Under the pieces are notes generated by a model. The model did no database searches. It was given only the letters and a program-made list of their open reading frames with translations, and was not told the DNA's origin. A stretch of 26,656 nucleotides of DNA from a virus: positions 1 through 26,656 of IMG/VR virus record IMGVR_UViG_3300032334_001620; one strand, 5' to 3'. The position numbers and the translations under genes were made by a program. Below, piece after piece: positions 270-12,755 of the stretch (positions within the stretch are counted from its first letter, which is position 1; every line of letters begins with the position of its first letter).

Positions 270-1040
270 TTAGTATTTCTGTACTTTTTTATAATCTAAT
301 ATAGATATTGGTTTTACAACAATTTCGTTCCAAAGATATGTTTTATCTTCTTTACATTTTTCCCAATTCCTACAAAGATTGTTTTCATTATCTGGGTAGG
401 AAAACCGAAATAAATTTGCGGCTCTATTGCCACGGTCTGTAACCAAAGTCTTTGCATCAGATTGAAAAGCTGCTACTAACTTACCTTTTATTTTTATTAA
501 TATATTACTTTCAGGTCTAAAAAATTCCTTTGCCTGTGTTGTAAATGTTGATATTGAATATTGAAATCCTTGATTAATACCATCTTCAATATTTTTTAAT
601 CCTTGTTCAGATGCCCAATGTAGAGTAGTTACTTCTATGTCAGTACTACCATATGTTTCTTGTGTAAATTTTCCATCCAACAATATGTACGGTTCTAATG
701 CTCCTCTTGAATAAAAGAAAGCAATTCTATCATCATTGATGTTTACAATATATTTACTAAATTCATTTTTTAATCCCCATGCTCTATGGTTCACAAAATC
801 TTCAATAAAATCTAATACATTCTTTTTTGTTAAATCATCGTATTGTTCTGTTTCAACGAATAATTGATAACCAAAGTATTTTTTGATTAAACCTACCAAA
901 ATTGGATTATTATCTATAACACCACCTCTTGTATCATATCCTTGTTTTTCAAGATTTAAAAACTCATTAGCTATTGCTTCCCATTCTGAAATTGTATGGA
1001 ATAATGCTTCTGGTTTGTAATATCCTCTAACTGGGTACAT
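270..1040 (-). CDS. Orphan 256-residue protein, weakly ADP-ribosyltransferase-like
   Basis: I do not recognise this family with certainty. The protein is soluble, with no signal peptide or membrane segment. The C-terminal half has an order that loosely recalls ADP-ribosyltransferase folds: a segment ISTFTTQAKEFF (about 162-173) resembling the S-T-S strand, then strands ending IKIKGKLVAAF, then LWNEIVVKPISIL close to the C-terminus, where such enzymes carry the catalytic glutamate. A clear E-x-E pair is missing (W-N-E instead), so activity is doubtful. The start lies one base after the stop of the possible packaged protein at 1042-2043, and the peptidoglycan-binding gene follows. This places it among virion or lysis genes. 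It could equally be an unrelated structural protein. Confidence 0.75.
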   Translation of the reverse strand: MYPVRGYYKPEALFHTISEWEAIANEFLNLEKQGYDTRGGVIDNNPILVGLIKKYFGYQLFVETEQYDDLTKKNVLDFIEDFVNHRAWGLKNEFSKYIVNINDDRIAFFYSRGALEPYILLDGKFTQETYGSTDIEVTTLHWASEQGLKNIEDGINQGFQYSISTFTTQAKEFFRPESNILIKIKGKLVAAFQSDAKTLVTDRGNRAANLFRFSYPDNENNLCRNWEKCKEDKTYLWNEIVVKPISILDYKKVQKY

Positions 1041-1041
1041 A

Positions 1042-2043
1042 TTATGCTATTGGCGATGGTCCTCCTTTTGTTCCAGTATCTGCTGCTTTTGGTTTAATAC
1101 CCATTGCTTCTGCAAATGCATTTGAACGTTTTACTAATGGTCTAATAGGTTCATCAATAACTCTAACTTGCATTGGTATTTGTTTATCAGGATGTGCTGC
1201 ATTAAATGCTACAATTGCTGCCCATCTATGGTGTCCATCTAATACATATCCATCATTAGATACATAAATTGGTGCAGTAATTTTTTTGTATGCAGGATGA
1301 TTGGGGTCTTCTAATACACCTTCCATACCTGCTACTTTAACACCAACCAATTCAGATTGAGTTGCTTTTAATCTATCGGCAGGAACATTTGTAGGTTTTG
1401 ATACTTTGATACCTTTCTTATTCAACATCTCTTTAAAAAATTCTTCAGTATCCACTTCACCACTACTATCTCTCGGTAGTTTATCAGCGGGTGAACCTTT
1501 TTCAGGTGTTCCTTTAAATTGTGGCATTTCCTCTCTTGGAATACCAATGTTTCCATCACAATAAAGGTTAGTACCTGGTATGGATACTTGGCATAGATTA
1601 AAGTTAGGTGCTTGCTCTCCTTTTTCTTTTGCTTGCTTACCCAATTCTGCCAACTTATCTATAATAGTAGATATTTGCTGTCTTTCAATCGGAGTTACTG
1701 CGGATAGTGGCTTTCTATCAAAATTAGCATTAGGCATTAAATCCTTTAGCATTGGTATCTCCGATTTTTTTGTATAAGATTTTGGAGTTTCAGCAGATGA
1801 TGCAAAATCACTACCACCTAATTTTTGACCCGTTTTAGTAGGTGCAGTATTTTGTGGTTTTTGAGGAGATGATGGTTCTGATTTTGGTAATTGTCCACCA
1901 TTCTTTGCCTTTGCCTGTTGGATTTCAGCAGGTGATGGTTTAACATGTTTACTTGGGTCCATCTTCTGAACCACATAAACATTACCCGTTTGTTTGTTTT
2001 TTACAACCTCTCCCTCTCTAAGTAGTGATTTTAATCGTATCAT
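1042..2043 (-). CDS. ParB-like domain protein with T4-style capsid-targeting N-terminus
   Basis: This is a 333-residue protein. The first ten residues, MIRLKSLLRE, followed by G, have the size and ending of T4 capsid-targeting peptides, which the prohead protease gp21 cuts after an (I/L)-x-E site; L8-R9-E10 fits. A lysine, proline and serine rich, probably disordered linker covers about 30-95. A middle segment has two cysteines (C151, C162) in a conserved-looking block ending GIPREEMPQ. Residues about 215-300 resemble the ParB/sulfiredoxin fold, with the hallmark DGHHR at 269-273 after a short strand, as in ParB-type nucleases and NTPases. The start overlaps the stop of the upstream 42-residue gene (TAATG). 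Inference: an internal virion protein carried into the host. The targeting function is untested and the protease is outside the window. Confidence 0.75.
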   Translation of the reverse strand: MIRLKSLLREGEVVKNKQTGNVYVVQKMDPSKHVKPSPAEIQQAKAKNGGQLPKSEPSSPQKPQNTAPTKTGQKLGGSDFASSAETPKSYTKKSEIPMLKDLMPNANFDRKPLSAVTPIERQQISTIIDKLAELGKQAKEKGEQAPNFNLCQVSIPGTNLYCDGNIGIPREEMPQFKGTPEKGSPADKLPRDSSGEVDTEEFFKEMLNKKGIKVSKPTNVPADRLKATQSELVGVKVAGMEGVLEDPNHPAYKKITAPIYVSNDGYVLDGHHRWAAIVAFNAAHPDKQIPMQVRVIDEPIRPLVKRSNAFAEAMGIKPKAADTGTKGGPSPIA

Positions 2044-3119: not shown

Positions 3120-4748
<1,629 letters not shown>

Positions 4749-5593: not shown

Positions 5594-6040
5594 TCAAACT
5601 AAAATTTTTATTAATTTTGCAAAAGTATTATCTAATACATCCGATGTATCTAAATCTACATAAAATTCTAAAGGTGGTTGATAATCTAATGCAAATAACT
5701 TTTCTTTACCTCTCATCTTTTTAGTATGACAATATATTTCTTGTACTTTGCATTCGGATTTAAATTGTTCTCTTAATTCTATGTATGGTGATACCATTGA
5801 TATTACAACATCACTACCACAATTATCTAAATATTTCGCAATATCAAATGCTTTTTGGATATTTTTTTCTTTACCAATTGTGGTATAATCCGTATTTGGA
5901 AATAATTCTATTAATCGTTCTTCATCAATGTGAAAAACATCTTTTCTCCAATTTTTTTTATCAGTTTGTAACCAAAATTGTAACTTTTTTGCCAAAGTAG
6001 TTTTACCACTACCCGGTTGACCTGTGAACAAAAATATCAT
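5594..6040 (-). CDS. Adenylylsulfate kinase-like P-loop kinase
   Basis: This is a 148-residue P-loop protein. Walker A is GQPGSGKT at 7-14, close to the N-terminus. FHIDEERL follows at the place of the APS-kinase acceptor loop, then VVISMVSPYIELREQF, the typical CysC-type SPY-R segment, and a C-terminal ALDYQPPLEFYVDLDTSD, again as in CysC-like kinases. It is shorter than cellular APS kinases of about 200 residues. APS kinase phosphorylates adenylylsulfate to PAPS, but phage proteins with this fold may phosphorylate other substrates. The start overlaps the 3' end of the HAD phosphatase gene by four bases, so the two are translationally coupled. A kinase-phosphatase pair acting on nucleic-acid ends or sugars is possible; the substrate cannot be told from sequence. 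Confidence 0.75.
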   Translation of the reverse strand: MIFLFTGQPGSGKTTLAKKLQFWLQTDKKNWRKDVFHIDEERLIELFPNTDYTTIGKEKNIQKAFDIAKYLDNCGSDVVISMVSPYIELREQFKSECKVQEIYCHTKKMRGKEKLFALDYQPPLEFYVDLDTSDVLDNTFAKLIKILV

Positions 6041-6705
6041 AATTTATTGGGTAATAACGATTTTAATTTATTTATATTTTCTTGATTTGGTGCATTGGGT
6101 ATATTATGCTGAACTTGTCTTACTTGCATCTTAACATTTGGGTATTTTTTTTCCAATGCTTTAACTGCTTGTACGTTTTTTTGAGAATCATCTATAAAGA
6201 ATACATCGTTGTAACCTTCTTTTATTTTTTGTTCTATCCAATCTGCTTTATCCTGTGGGTCAACACTATTGAGAGCAACAACATATATATCTCTTAAACC
6301 AATATCTGATAAATAATCTTTAATTGGTTTATACGAACCTCTTGCGGTTAATATTACTATTGCTCTTTCACCTTCTGCTTTTACAAGCTTTCTTAGTAAA
6401 TCGGTAACACCTTTAATTTCTTGTGGTTGCTTTACTTGTTCAAAATCTGAAAAATCAAACTTATCACCTTTCTTTGGTTCATATACTGCATATTCACCAG
6501 GAGTTAATGTTGATTTTTTGCCATCTTTGTGTGTGATATATATATTTGATTTTGTCTGAACTAATGTATCATCAAAATCAAATACTCGTAACTTTTTTCC
6601 CATAACCTCTTTAACTTGCCCAAATGCGGTTACCATAGGATTTCCATAAACCTTACCAAACTCTACTTTTCTACCGTTCCAAATACCAGATGTTGGTTTA
6701 GCCAT
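6037..6705 (-). CDS. HAD-family phosphatase
   Basis: This is a 222-residue protein. After about 38 residues of N-terminal extension, the HAD motifs appear in order: motif I DFDDT (D43 nucleophile, D45 acid/base), motif II ILTARG with T120, a likely motif III lysine K153, and motif IV FIDDS with D172 and D173. Residues 50-90 form a cap-like insertion. All catalytic residues are present, so it should be an active phosphatase. The architecture recalls the small HAD and polynucleotide 3'-phosphatase domains carried by T4-like phages. It overlaps the downstream kinase gene by four bases and the upstream coiled-coil gene by eight. A joint 3'-phosphatase and 5'-kinase role, as in T4 PseT but split into two genes, is an inference. 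Confidence 0.85.
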   Translation of the reverse strand: MAKPTSGIWNGRKVEFGKVYGNPMVTAFGQVKEVMGKKLRVFDFDDTLVQTKSNIYITHKDGKKSTLTPGEYAVYEPKKGDKFDFSDFEQVKQPQEIKGVTDLLRKLVKAEGERAIVILTARGSYKPIKDYLSDIGLRDIYVVALNSVDPQDKADWIEQKIKEGYNDVFFIDDSQKNVQAVKALEKKYPNVKMQVRQVQHNIPNAPNQENINKLKSLLPNKL

Positions 6706-11875: not shown

Positions 11876-12573
11876 TTATTTAAAAATTTGTTTAATTTAT
11901 CAATTGAAAATGATGTATCTTTTGGATAACCATCTGGCACTTTAGTAGGTATTACATTTGGAAAATCAGTTTTAACTAAATCATATATAGATTTAGATTC
12001 AGTACCAACATTATATACCCCCGATTCATCTGCATTTACTAATTCAATTATCAATTCTGCTATTTTATGTGTATAATCAAAATTACCAATTCTATCTACA
12101 AATGCATTTTCAAATGGAAATGGATATGGTTTATGAGTACATCTACATATTAAATAATTATCTGATAATAATTGAACAATCCCATCTCCCAATAGTTTAG
12201 TATAAGAATACCAATGTTCTGAATGTACCGGTACATCCTCTTCTGTTGCTTGTTTGTTTATGTTATTTGCAAACATATAATCAGTTCCGATATGTACCAA
12301 TTTTATATTATTCAAATTACAAAAGTTTATTAACTTATAAATTGATTTATAATTAGTATTCCAATGTGCATCTCTATCAGTAGAATATGTATTTGTATTT
12401 GCTATACAATTTACTATAACATCATATTCCAATAATTTTGAAAAATTAGATTCATCGTTTATATCAAATCCATTTTTTTTACGAGATATTAAACTCCAAT
12501 CGGTTTGTTTTACGATTTCAGAACCCAATAACCCATCACCTAATACTACAATTGTGGGAACACTTCTATACAT
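11872..12573 (-). CDS. RmlD-like sugar-nucleotide reductase (SDR)
   Basis: This 233-residue extended SDR is shorter than RmlD at about 290 residues. The NAD(P) loop is VVLGDGLLGSE (G12-x-G14-x-x-G17). IVNCIANTNTYSTD matches the RmlD-type VNCAAYTxVD segment, IKLVHIGTDYMF corresponds to the STDYVF strand with the catalytic threonine, and Y122-SYT-K126 is the YxxxK pair. NVGTESKSIYDLV follows the usual C-terminal pattern. It probably reduces a 4-keto sugar nucleotide at the end of a deoxysugar pathway. The start overlaps the preceding 69-residue gene by 28 bases, and there is no later methionine that keeps the glycine loop. It precedes the C-methyltransferase with a 4-base overlap. Confidence 0.85.
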   Translation of the reverse strand: MYRSVPTIVVLGDGLLGSEIVKQTDWSLISRKKNGFDINDESNFSKLLEYDVIVNCIANTNTYSTDRDAHWNTNYKSIYKLINFCNLNNIKLVHIGTDYMFANNINKQATEEDVPVHSEHWYSYTKLLGDGIVQLLSDNYLICRCTHKPYPFPFENAFVDRIGNFDYTHKIAELIIELVNADESGVYNVGTESKSIYDLVKTDFPNVIPTKVPDGYPKDTSFSIDKLNKFLNK

Positions 12574-12755
12574 AATACATTTTTATCGTTTATCAAAATC
12601 ATTCTACCATCCTTTGTCATAAGTTTGGTAAATTGACCTTGCTTAATATATTCTGATTCTATATTTTCAAAAGTTCTTTTTTCACCACCCACAAAGTGTA
12701 TTATTTGGGTGGTGAATTTTCCTTGTGATTTAACGCTTGATTGTAAATCTACCAT
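12546..12755 (-). CDS. Small orphan beta protein, 69 residues
   Basis: The product appears strand-rich, with TQIIHFVGGEKRTFENI, then GQFTKLMTKDGRMILINDKNVLCIEVF, suggesting a small barrel, and without known catalytic motifs. The start overlaps the stop of the 3-dehydrase gene by one base (TAATG) and the 3' end overlaps the reductase gene by 28 bases, so it is tied into the deoxysugar operon. An 11-bp inverted repeat lies inside it (12681-12716). It may be a partner or regulator of the pathway, but I have no direct evidence. Confidence 0.6.
   Translation of the reverse strand: MVDLQSSVKSQGKFTTQIIHFVGGEKRTFENIESEYIKQGQFTKLMTKDGRMILINDKNVLCIEVFPQL
12681..12716. repeat. Perfect 11-bp inverted repeat with 14-base loop, inside a gene
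   Basis: TTCACCACCCA (12681-12691) and TGGGTGGTGAA (12706-12716) are exact reverse complements separated by 14 bases. The stem has six G-C pairs, which stands out in this AT-rich window. It lies within the small 69-residue gene, about 108-143 bases upstream of the reductase start. On the transcript it would form a hairpin; it may also be a protein-binding site. On the minus strand it is followed by a run of A, not T, so it is not a standard terminator for these genes. Confidence 0.6.

What the first reader, a model, noticed from the sequence alone, without database searches (positions are those of the whole stretch)
1042..2043. Possible injected ParB-like effector with a T4-style capsid-targeting peptide
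MIRLKSLLRE followed by G has the length and the L-x-E end of T4 targeting peptides cut by gp21, followed by a disordered linker and a ParB/sulfiredoxin-like domain with DGHHR (269-273). T4 uses such peptides to pack internal proteins that enter the host with the DNA. A packaged ParB-like nuclease or NTPase would be a new kind of ejected effector.
Basis: partly seen in the sequence, partly recalled or inferred. Interest (0 to 1): 0.7.

Follow-up and report, generated by a model that had tools for sequence, protein, structure and literature searches.

The report
Phage protein tagged for head packaging
This gene of a T4-related aquatic phage makes an enzyme-like protein whose first ten residues match the address label T4 uses to load proteins into its head, and its relatives use the same label on many unrelated proteins, so the phage probably injects a set of enzymes along with its DNA.

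Summary
The packaging idea holds up well. In T4, positions 4 and 7 of the 10-residue capsid targeting sequence (CTS) direct targeting; 8 and 10 direct cleavage. Applied to 1521 ORFs of this window and seven large relatives, that rule finds 22 N-termini against about 2 expected, in about 14 families, including a head-module gene beside the protease. All seven relatives encode a gp21-type protease and a T4-like capsid protein with an LLDE|A site aligned to T4's FLTE|A. All complete ParB homologues of the compact clade keep a 10-16-residue tag ending [LI]xE; in two relatives the gene lies between protease and scaffold. A distant homologue in Dickeya phage LIMEstone1 is virion-confirmed by mass spectrometry. 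The domain has the ParB/sulfiredoxin fold, but its active-site motif is that of the free-serine kinase SerK (DGHHRWA), favouring nucleotide-dependent phosphotransfer over DNase. It is not a new kind of ejected protein (P1 DdrB; LIMEstone1), but a new variant: T4-type CTS plus SerK-like ParB fold, within a larger tagged cargo set. Packaging, cleavage and activity remain untested in this phage.

The parts
1042..2043 (-). whole gene: predicted internal head protein with N-terminal CTS and ParB/Srx-fold domain, 333 aa
   Evidence: ORF; 22 homologous loci in the first scan, over 500 in the alignment-based scan
2014..2043 (-). capsid-targeting peptide MIRLKSLLRE (residues 1-10), predicted prohead-protease site after E10
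   Evidence: T4 rule test; conservation; T4 rule from PMC9026906
2047..2053 (-). purine-rich AAGGGAG, possible ribosome-binding site
   Evidence: sequence; consensus resemblance only
1903..2013 (-). residues 11-47: beta-hairpin/helix module (GEVVKNKQTGNVYVV...), predicted new N-terminus of the mature protein
   Evidence: AlphaFold model; conserved in the compact clade
1759..1902 (-). residues 48-95: linker, mostly disordered, variable
   Evidence: pLDDT under 50 at 58-95; gaps in alignment A1
1084..1758 (-). residues 96-320: conserved domain; the ParB/Srx fold is its C-terminal half (about 209-320)
   Evidence: model pLDDT 92.7, pTM 0.88; structural matches
1225..1239 (-). DGHHR motif, residues 269-273 (invariant; the extended motif DGHHRWA is shared with SerK)
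   Evidence: invariant in 42 homologues; match to SerK chains 5x0b/5x0e/5x0j and 1vk1

Best explanation
The gene encodes an internal head protein of a T4-related ('far-T4') phage. The first ten residues are a T4-type capsid targeting sequence: hydrophobic residues 4 and 7 dock the protein on the prohead core, and the gp21-type protease cuts after L-R-E (residues 8-10) during head maturation. The mature protein starts at G11, stays in the head with the DNA and enters the host with it. In the host the ParB/Srx-fold domain binds a nucleotide through its DGHHRW loop and most likely acts as a nucleotide-dependent phosphotransferase or NTPase, SerK-like, and not as a DNase. Shown here by sequence: the tag, its conservation and recurrence, the protease, the capsid-protein cleavage site, the fold and the motif. 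Inferred: packaging, cleavage, ejection and catalytic activity.
For: T4 IPIII needs only its first 10 residues for packaging; residues 4 and 7 target, 8 and 10 direct processing, and gp21 cuts after L/I-X-E (PMC9026906). The same positions are fixed by class here (4 I/L, 7 F/I/L, 8 I/L, 10 E) while position 9 varies freely. 22 such N-termini against 2.05 expected. S77/gp21 protease in 7 of 7 large relatives, with the T4 gp21 segments around ALGELNHP and SSRGLGS conserved. Capsid-protein site LLDE|A aligns with T4 FLTE|A. The window is collinear with relatives G004 and G005. In G009 and G011 the ParB gene lies between protease and scaffold/MCP; other relatives have it near terminase or portal genes. 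The HAD protein of the same phages carries the tag in some relatives and lacks it in the window. A homologue is an MS-confirmed virion protein in LIMEstone1. Fold: every entry with Z of 4 or more is ParB/Srx superfamily. Motif identical to SerK; weak SerK and DUF1015 profile hits.
Against: No virion proteome was found for this lineage, so neither presence in the head nor cleavage is shown. The window is a 26.7-kb fragment without head genes. In the compact clade the gene is not in the head module but near a peptidoglycan-binding ORF and, in some relatives, a 256-aa ORF. The LIMEstone1 homologue is in virions without this tag, so the domain can reach virions another way. Structural Z scores are modest (6.0 or less), and profile hits to SerK and DUF1015 are below the curated cut-offs.
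Confidence: 0.72

Rival explanations
1. The protein is packaged by the tag but works in head assembly: like P1 DdrB it helps load or organise other cargo in the head and has no role in the host cell.
For: The P1 virion table lists DdrB as 'aids DarB addition to capsid', and Iyer et al. place a ParB/Srx domain in DdrB. In G009 and G011 the gene is embedded in the head module.
Against: Invariant nucleotide-binding-type motif DGHHRW in 42 homologues. Small stand-alone versions exist in other phages (LIMEstone1, 149 aa). In the window's own clade the gene lies outside the head module.
Confidence: 0.3
2. The domain is an NTP-regulated DNase that attacks host or rival DNA early in infection, as proposed for DdrB-like ParB domains.
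For: Iyer et al. 2017 propose this for polyvalent ParB domains. PF0380, a homologue of SerK, was reported to have nuclease activity (cited in PMC5120207).
Against: Zhang et al. 2012 criticise the evidence that labelled ParB a nuclease. TK0378, annotated ParB and bearing the same DGHHRWA motif, is a free-serine kinase.
Confidence: 0.2
3. The conserved MIKLKxLLxE start is not a packaging signal but an ordinary amphipathic N-terminal helix, with another role (binding, stability, translation) and no processing.
For: No direct proof of processing. Some tagged ORFs are small and of unknown function.
Against: Restricted to N-termini: 22 against 2. The conserved positions are those that matter in T4 IPIII. 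The tag is on the head-module protein beside the protease in the five closest large relatives plus G011. It is gained and lost on the same protein body. Capsid and protease specificity agree.
Confidence: 0.15
4. An ordinary ParB-type partition or DNA-binding regulator made in the infected cell.
For: Weak match to a PHROG called ParB-like partition protein (E 0.024).
Against: No Pfam ParB domain hit for the window protein; no further folded domain after residue 320 in the model; no ParA-like gene noticed in the window.
Confidence: 0.04

Closest known systems
T4 internal proteins IPI, IPII, IPIII and Alt (capsid targeting sequence)
   Same: Ten-residue N-terminal peptide, hydrophobic at 4 and 7, L/I at 8, E at 10; gp21-type protease; one tag shared by unrelated cargo proteins
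   Different: Different peptide (MI[KR]LKxLLxE against MKTYQEFIAE); cargo is a ParB/Srx-fold protein, unrelated to the IPs or Alt; processing not shown
Phage P1 DdrB and the DdrB-like ParB domains of polyvalent proteins (Iyer et al. 2017)
   Same: ParB/Srx-superfamily domain with conserved Arg in a virion-head protein
   Different: No detectable profile match; window protein has a single enzymatic domain, no metallopeptidase domain, and a T4-type CTS
LIMEstone1 YP_007237423.1 (Ackermannviridae) and its relatives
   Same: Homologous domain (hhalign probability 98.5%) with the MPQ and DGxHR motifs; MS-confirmed in the virion
   Different: 149 aa, no CTS-like start, DGSHRY in place of DGHHRW
Archaeal free-serine kinase SerK (TK0378; PDB 5x0b, 5x0e, 5x0j)
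   Same: ParB/Srx fold (Z 5.7) and the identical DGHHRWA motif
   Different: Otherwise very distant; score 13.9 against a curated cut-off of 380; substrate unknown here
F116-type and BcepMigl-type giant phage proteins (PLxRFG, DarB-like)
   Same: Same domain at 28-35% identity inside virion-type polyvalent proteins
   Different: Giant multidomain proteins; here a stand-alone 333-aa protein in the window's clade

Membership tests
T4-type CTS-bearing internal head protein | N-terminal peptide of about 10 aa with hydrophobic 4 and 7, L/I at 8, E at 10 | tested here: met
   MIRLKSLLRE; rule
T4-type CTS-bearing internal head protein | Same tag on unrelated proteins of the same phages | tested here: met
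   22 N-termini in about 14 families against 2.05 expected
T4-type CTS-bearing internal head protein | gp21-type protease with L/I-x-E specificity in the genome | tested here: met
   PF03420 in 7 of 7 large relatives, MCP site LLDE|A; the window itself is a fragment without head genes, so this rests on its relatives
T4-type CTS-bearing internal head protein | Presence in the virion, cleaved after E10, ejected into the host | not testable with these tools
   needs mass spectrometry and infection assays
ParB/sulfiredoxin superfamily | ParB/Srx fold | tested here: met
   model pLDDT 92.7; all 19 entries with Z of 4 or more are ParB/Srx superfamily, Z 4.8-6.0; Z is modest
ParB/sulfiredoxin superfamily | Conserved nucleotide-loop residues including Arg | tested here: met
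   DGHHR invariant in 42 sequences
Sulfiredoxin (as a reductase) | Catalytic Cys before His-Arg (GGCHR; recalled from the literature, not fetched) | tested here: not met
   the position holds His (DGHHR) in all 42 sequences
Canonical ParB | ParB N-domain plus HTH and dimerisation domains | tested here: not met
   no Pfam ParB or HTH hit for the window protein; no further folded domain after residue 320
SerK free-serine kinase | DGHHRWA active-site motif | tested here: met
SerK free-serine kinase | NCBIfam equivalog score at least 380 | tested here: not met
   13.9 bits
SerK free-serine kinase | Phosphorylates free serine with ADP | not testable with these tools
   needs enzyme assay
DdrB-like ParB domain (Iyer 2017) | Match to the DdrB ParB family and its lineage-specific residues | tested here: inconclusive
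   no Pfam or PHROG hit to it; the Arg is present; no direct profile comparison was made
Polyvalent protein | Two or more effector domains in one virion protein | tested here: not met
   the window protein has one enzymatic domain; relatives of 900-2100 aa place the domain in longer proteins

The most novel reading that the evidence does not exclude
These far-T4 phages use one portable CTS to load a mixed enzyme cocktail into their heads: a SerK-like ParB-fold phosphotransferase, a zeta-toxin-type kinase, a HAD phosphatase, a nucleotidyltransferase giant and DUF5872-type proteins. The ParB-fold member phosphorylates a host metabolite or protein in the first minutes of infection.
Probability: 0.3. 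Interest if true: 0.8.

Novelty: new variant of a known kind. Interest (0 to 1): 0.6.

Why it matters
Injected proteins are hard to predict from sequence. A short, testable N-terminal rule taken from T4 works in a widespread uncultured phage group and flags the ParB-fold protein, a zeta-type kinase, a HAD hydrolase and other unknowns as likely head cargo. It also points to phosphotransfer, not DNA cutting, as the activity to test in a phage ParB family with hundreds of members, a distant member of which is already known to be in virions.

Tried and rejected
The window's own record holds only this 26.7-kb fragment, so head genes had to be sought in relatives. Sequence search of the PDB with alignment A1 found nothing; alignment A2 found only the SerK motif at E 0.33. 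A single-sequence search gave an unrelated chance match, CsmA. PDB Foldseek gave no match at E 0.001 or better; the fold assignment rests on all top structural rows being one superfamily. SerK's catalytic glutamate was suspected to match E231, but no alignment here proves it. Literature search for a virion proteome of the related Flavobacterium phage immuto found none. Canonical ParB and true sulfiredoxin were rejected (see the membership test). Whether the 256-aa neighbour (270-1040) is an ADP-ribosyltransferase was considered from motifs only and not tested.

Full report
What is there. The ORF is exactly as described: 1042-2043, minus strand, 333 aa, starting MIRLKSLLRE-G, with DGHHR at 269-273. 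The start codon is the only plausible one: no earlier in-frame start, a stop 15 codons upstream and a purine-rich AAGGGAG before the ATG. The record is a 26,656-base virus fragment that is collinear with two large relatives, G004 (198 kb) and G005 (180 kb), over almost its whole length. Judged by the relatives' capsid protein, the nearest cultured phages are Flavobacterium phage immuto, Microcystis phage Mel-JY01 and, further off, Rhodothermus phage RM378, that is, distant T4 relatives.

The tag against an independent rule. In T4, the first ten residues of IPIII suffice for packaging; residues 4 and 7 matter for targeting, 8 and 10 for processing; gp21 cuts after L/I-X-E (PMC9026906). MIRLKSLLRE has L4, L7, L8 and E10. 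I applied this rule, taken from T4 and not from this family, to 1521 ORFs of the window and seven large relatives. It matched 22 N-termini; internal windows predict 2.05, shuffled N-termini 2.4 (maximum 8 in 300 shuffles), and frames shifted by 1-6 residues gave 3-10. A second pattern gave 29 against 1.15. The hits fall into about 14 families. They include a 138-145-aa protein encoded beside the prohead protease; small unknown proteins; a DUF5872-like protein (weak hit, below Pfam's cut-off); and giant nucleotidyltransferase/HD-domain proteins. The caveats are simple ORF calling and the counting of orthologues from several genomes.

Portability. A HAD-family protein is encoded in the window (6037-6705) without a tag. 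Its orthologue starts MIKLKGLLNE|IFTKP in L013 and MNLRSLLKE|SFSKP in G007, and others have intermediate starts. A zeta-toxin/AAA_33-type kinase carries MIKLKDLLNSNILNE|G in G004, MIKLKDLLNPPVLNE|G in G005 and MAILLKPLLNE|G in G007. The same protein body with and without the tag is what a modular targeting signal predicts.

Conservation in the family. Of the ParB-family N-termini that are complete, every member of the window's compact clade has a 10-residue tag of T4 geometry or a 14-16-residue version ending [LI]xE (for example MNKLERKLYNIIQE, MIKLKSLINKSFLLKE). Among the tags of T4 geometry, position 9 takes eight different residues while 4, 7, 8 and 10 stay in class; because those tags were selected by the rule this is only illustrative, but the unselected alignment A1 shows the same. 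The codons vary at many synonymous sites. A few longer relatives (L017, L136) have other N-termini.

The machinery. PF03420 (Peptidase_S77, the T4 gp21 family) is found in all seven large relatives (also phrog_207, E 2.5e-52). The segments around T4's ALGELNHP and VSSRGLGS are conserved. The major capsid protein (phrog_138, E 6.6e-73) has LLDE|A, or [VI]SE|A in immuto and Mel-JY01, at the position of T4's FLTE|A cleavage site. In G009 and G011 the ParB gene lies inside the head module, between protease and scaffold/capsid genes. In 11 of 67 distinct loci, head or packaging genes lie within the fetched flank. In the window's own clade it does not; the neighbours there are a peptidoglycan-binding ORF and, in some relatives, a 256-aa ORF.

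Independent virion evidence. A distant homologue (hhalign probability 98.5%, E 2.7e-15) in Dickeya phage LIMEstone1 is annotated 'confirmed structural protein'. Table 2 of the paper lists an 'unknown structural protein' of 17.31 kDa with 35.57% coverage and 5 peptides under ORF 102. The 149-aa homologue has mass 17,302 Da, and 53/149 = 35.57%. So I identify the row with this protein, despite the numbering offset by one from GenBank's ORF101. It has no MIKLK-type start, so the domain reaches virions there by other means. Other matches are PLxRFG, DarB-like and 'structural' proteins of F116-type, BcepMigl and Ackermannviridae phages.

What the domain does. A model of residues 96-320 from 42 homologues has pLDDT 92.7 and pTM 0.88. 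All entries with Z of 4 or more are ParB/Srx superfamily: Noc, ParB, sulfiredoxin, PadC and SerK (Z 4.8-6.0). These scores are tied and modest. The motif is more telling: the profile's best PDB sequence matches are SerK chains and 1vk1, through an identical DGHHRWA. NCBIfam's only hit is SerK (E 0.022 here, 0.0037 for G011, far below cut-off). Pfam's most frequent weak hit is DUF1015. SerK (TK0378) had been annotated ParB and proved to be an ADP-dependent free-serine kinase (PMC5120207). A 2025 survey shows that the fold binds CTP, ATP or GTP and notes many phage members (PMC12704722). I therefore favour nucleotide-dependent phosphotransfer or an NTPase (about 0.45) over DNase (0.2). A loading or assembly role as reported for P1 DdrB is a serious rival (0.3).

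Novelty. Packaged ParB-domain proteins were already proposed (Iyer et al. 2017) and P1 DdrB is in the virion. T4 CTSs are classical, and P1 DarB also has an N-terminal packaging signal. What appears new is the combination: a T4-type CTS on a SerK-like ParB-fold protein, in a phage group that uses the same tag on a wider cargo set. No paper in the searched library describes it, but that library is incomplete.

Noticed in passing
window 6037-6705 (minus); L013, G007:77076-77789: HAD-family protein without a tag here, but with MIKLKGLLNE / MNLRSLLKE CTS-like starts in two relatives: tag gain or loss on the same protein.
   Followed up: partly
G004:7887-8639, G005:6996-7706, G007:58133-58873: Zeta-toxin/AAA_33-type P-loop kinases with CTS-like starts (MIKLKDLLNSNILNE|G, MAILLKPLLNE|G): candidate injected kinases.
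   Followed up: partly
G011:75370-80859 (1829 aa), G009:81553-86493 (1646 aa): Giant proteins starting MNELSRYLVE / MNSLSNFLVE followed by a cytidylyltransferase-like domain (PF01467; also HD domain in G009). In other relatives (L131, L141, L150, L156) the ParB domain follows this type of start in one long ORF.
   Followed up: partly
L019 and L020 (ORFs of 933 and 954 aa), about residues 570-600; G011:63236-63487: An internal STRLTSILKE|A tag-like stretch sits before a repeated DDKYTHIGYGRYKEKGK module, and a separate small gene starts MKSTRLTSILKE: looks like tagged proteins fused into a polyprotein with internal protease sites.
   Followed up: no
G011:305-565: 86-aa ORF starting MKTWKEFLHE, strikingly like T4's own MKTYQEFIAE.
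   Followed up: no
L179 (Mel-JY01 50001-100000):10276-10926 and 12056-12718: Two related proteins starting MIKLKSLLQE and MIKLMSLVTE followed by ISDRVWHLT...: tagged cargo of unknown family in an isolated phage.
   Followed up: no
window 270-1040 (minus): 256-aa protein of unknown function directly downstream of the ParB gene, kept in only some relatives; no tag; motifs LHWAS...ISTFT faintly recall ADP-ribosyltransferases (untested).
   Followed up: no
window 3120-4739 (minus): Phage-encoded GroEL, 93% identical to the G004 copy; the related phage immuto also carries GroES/GroEL.
   Followed up: no
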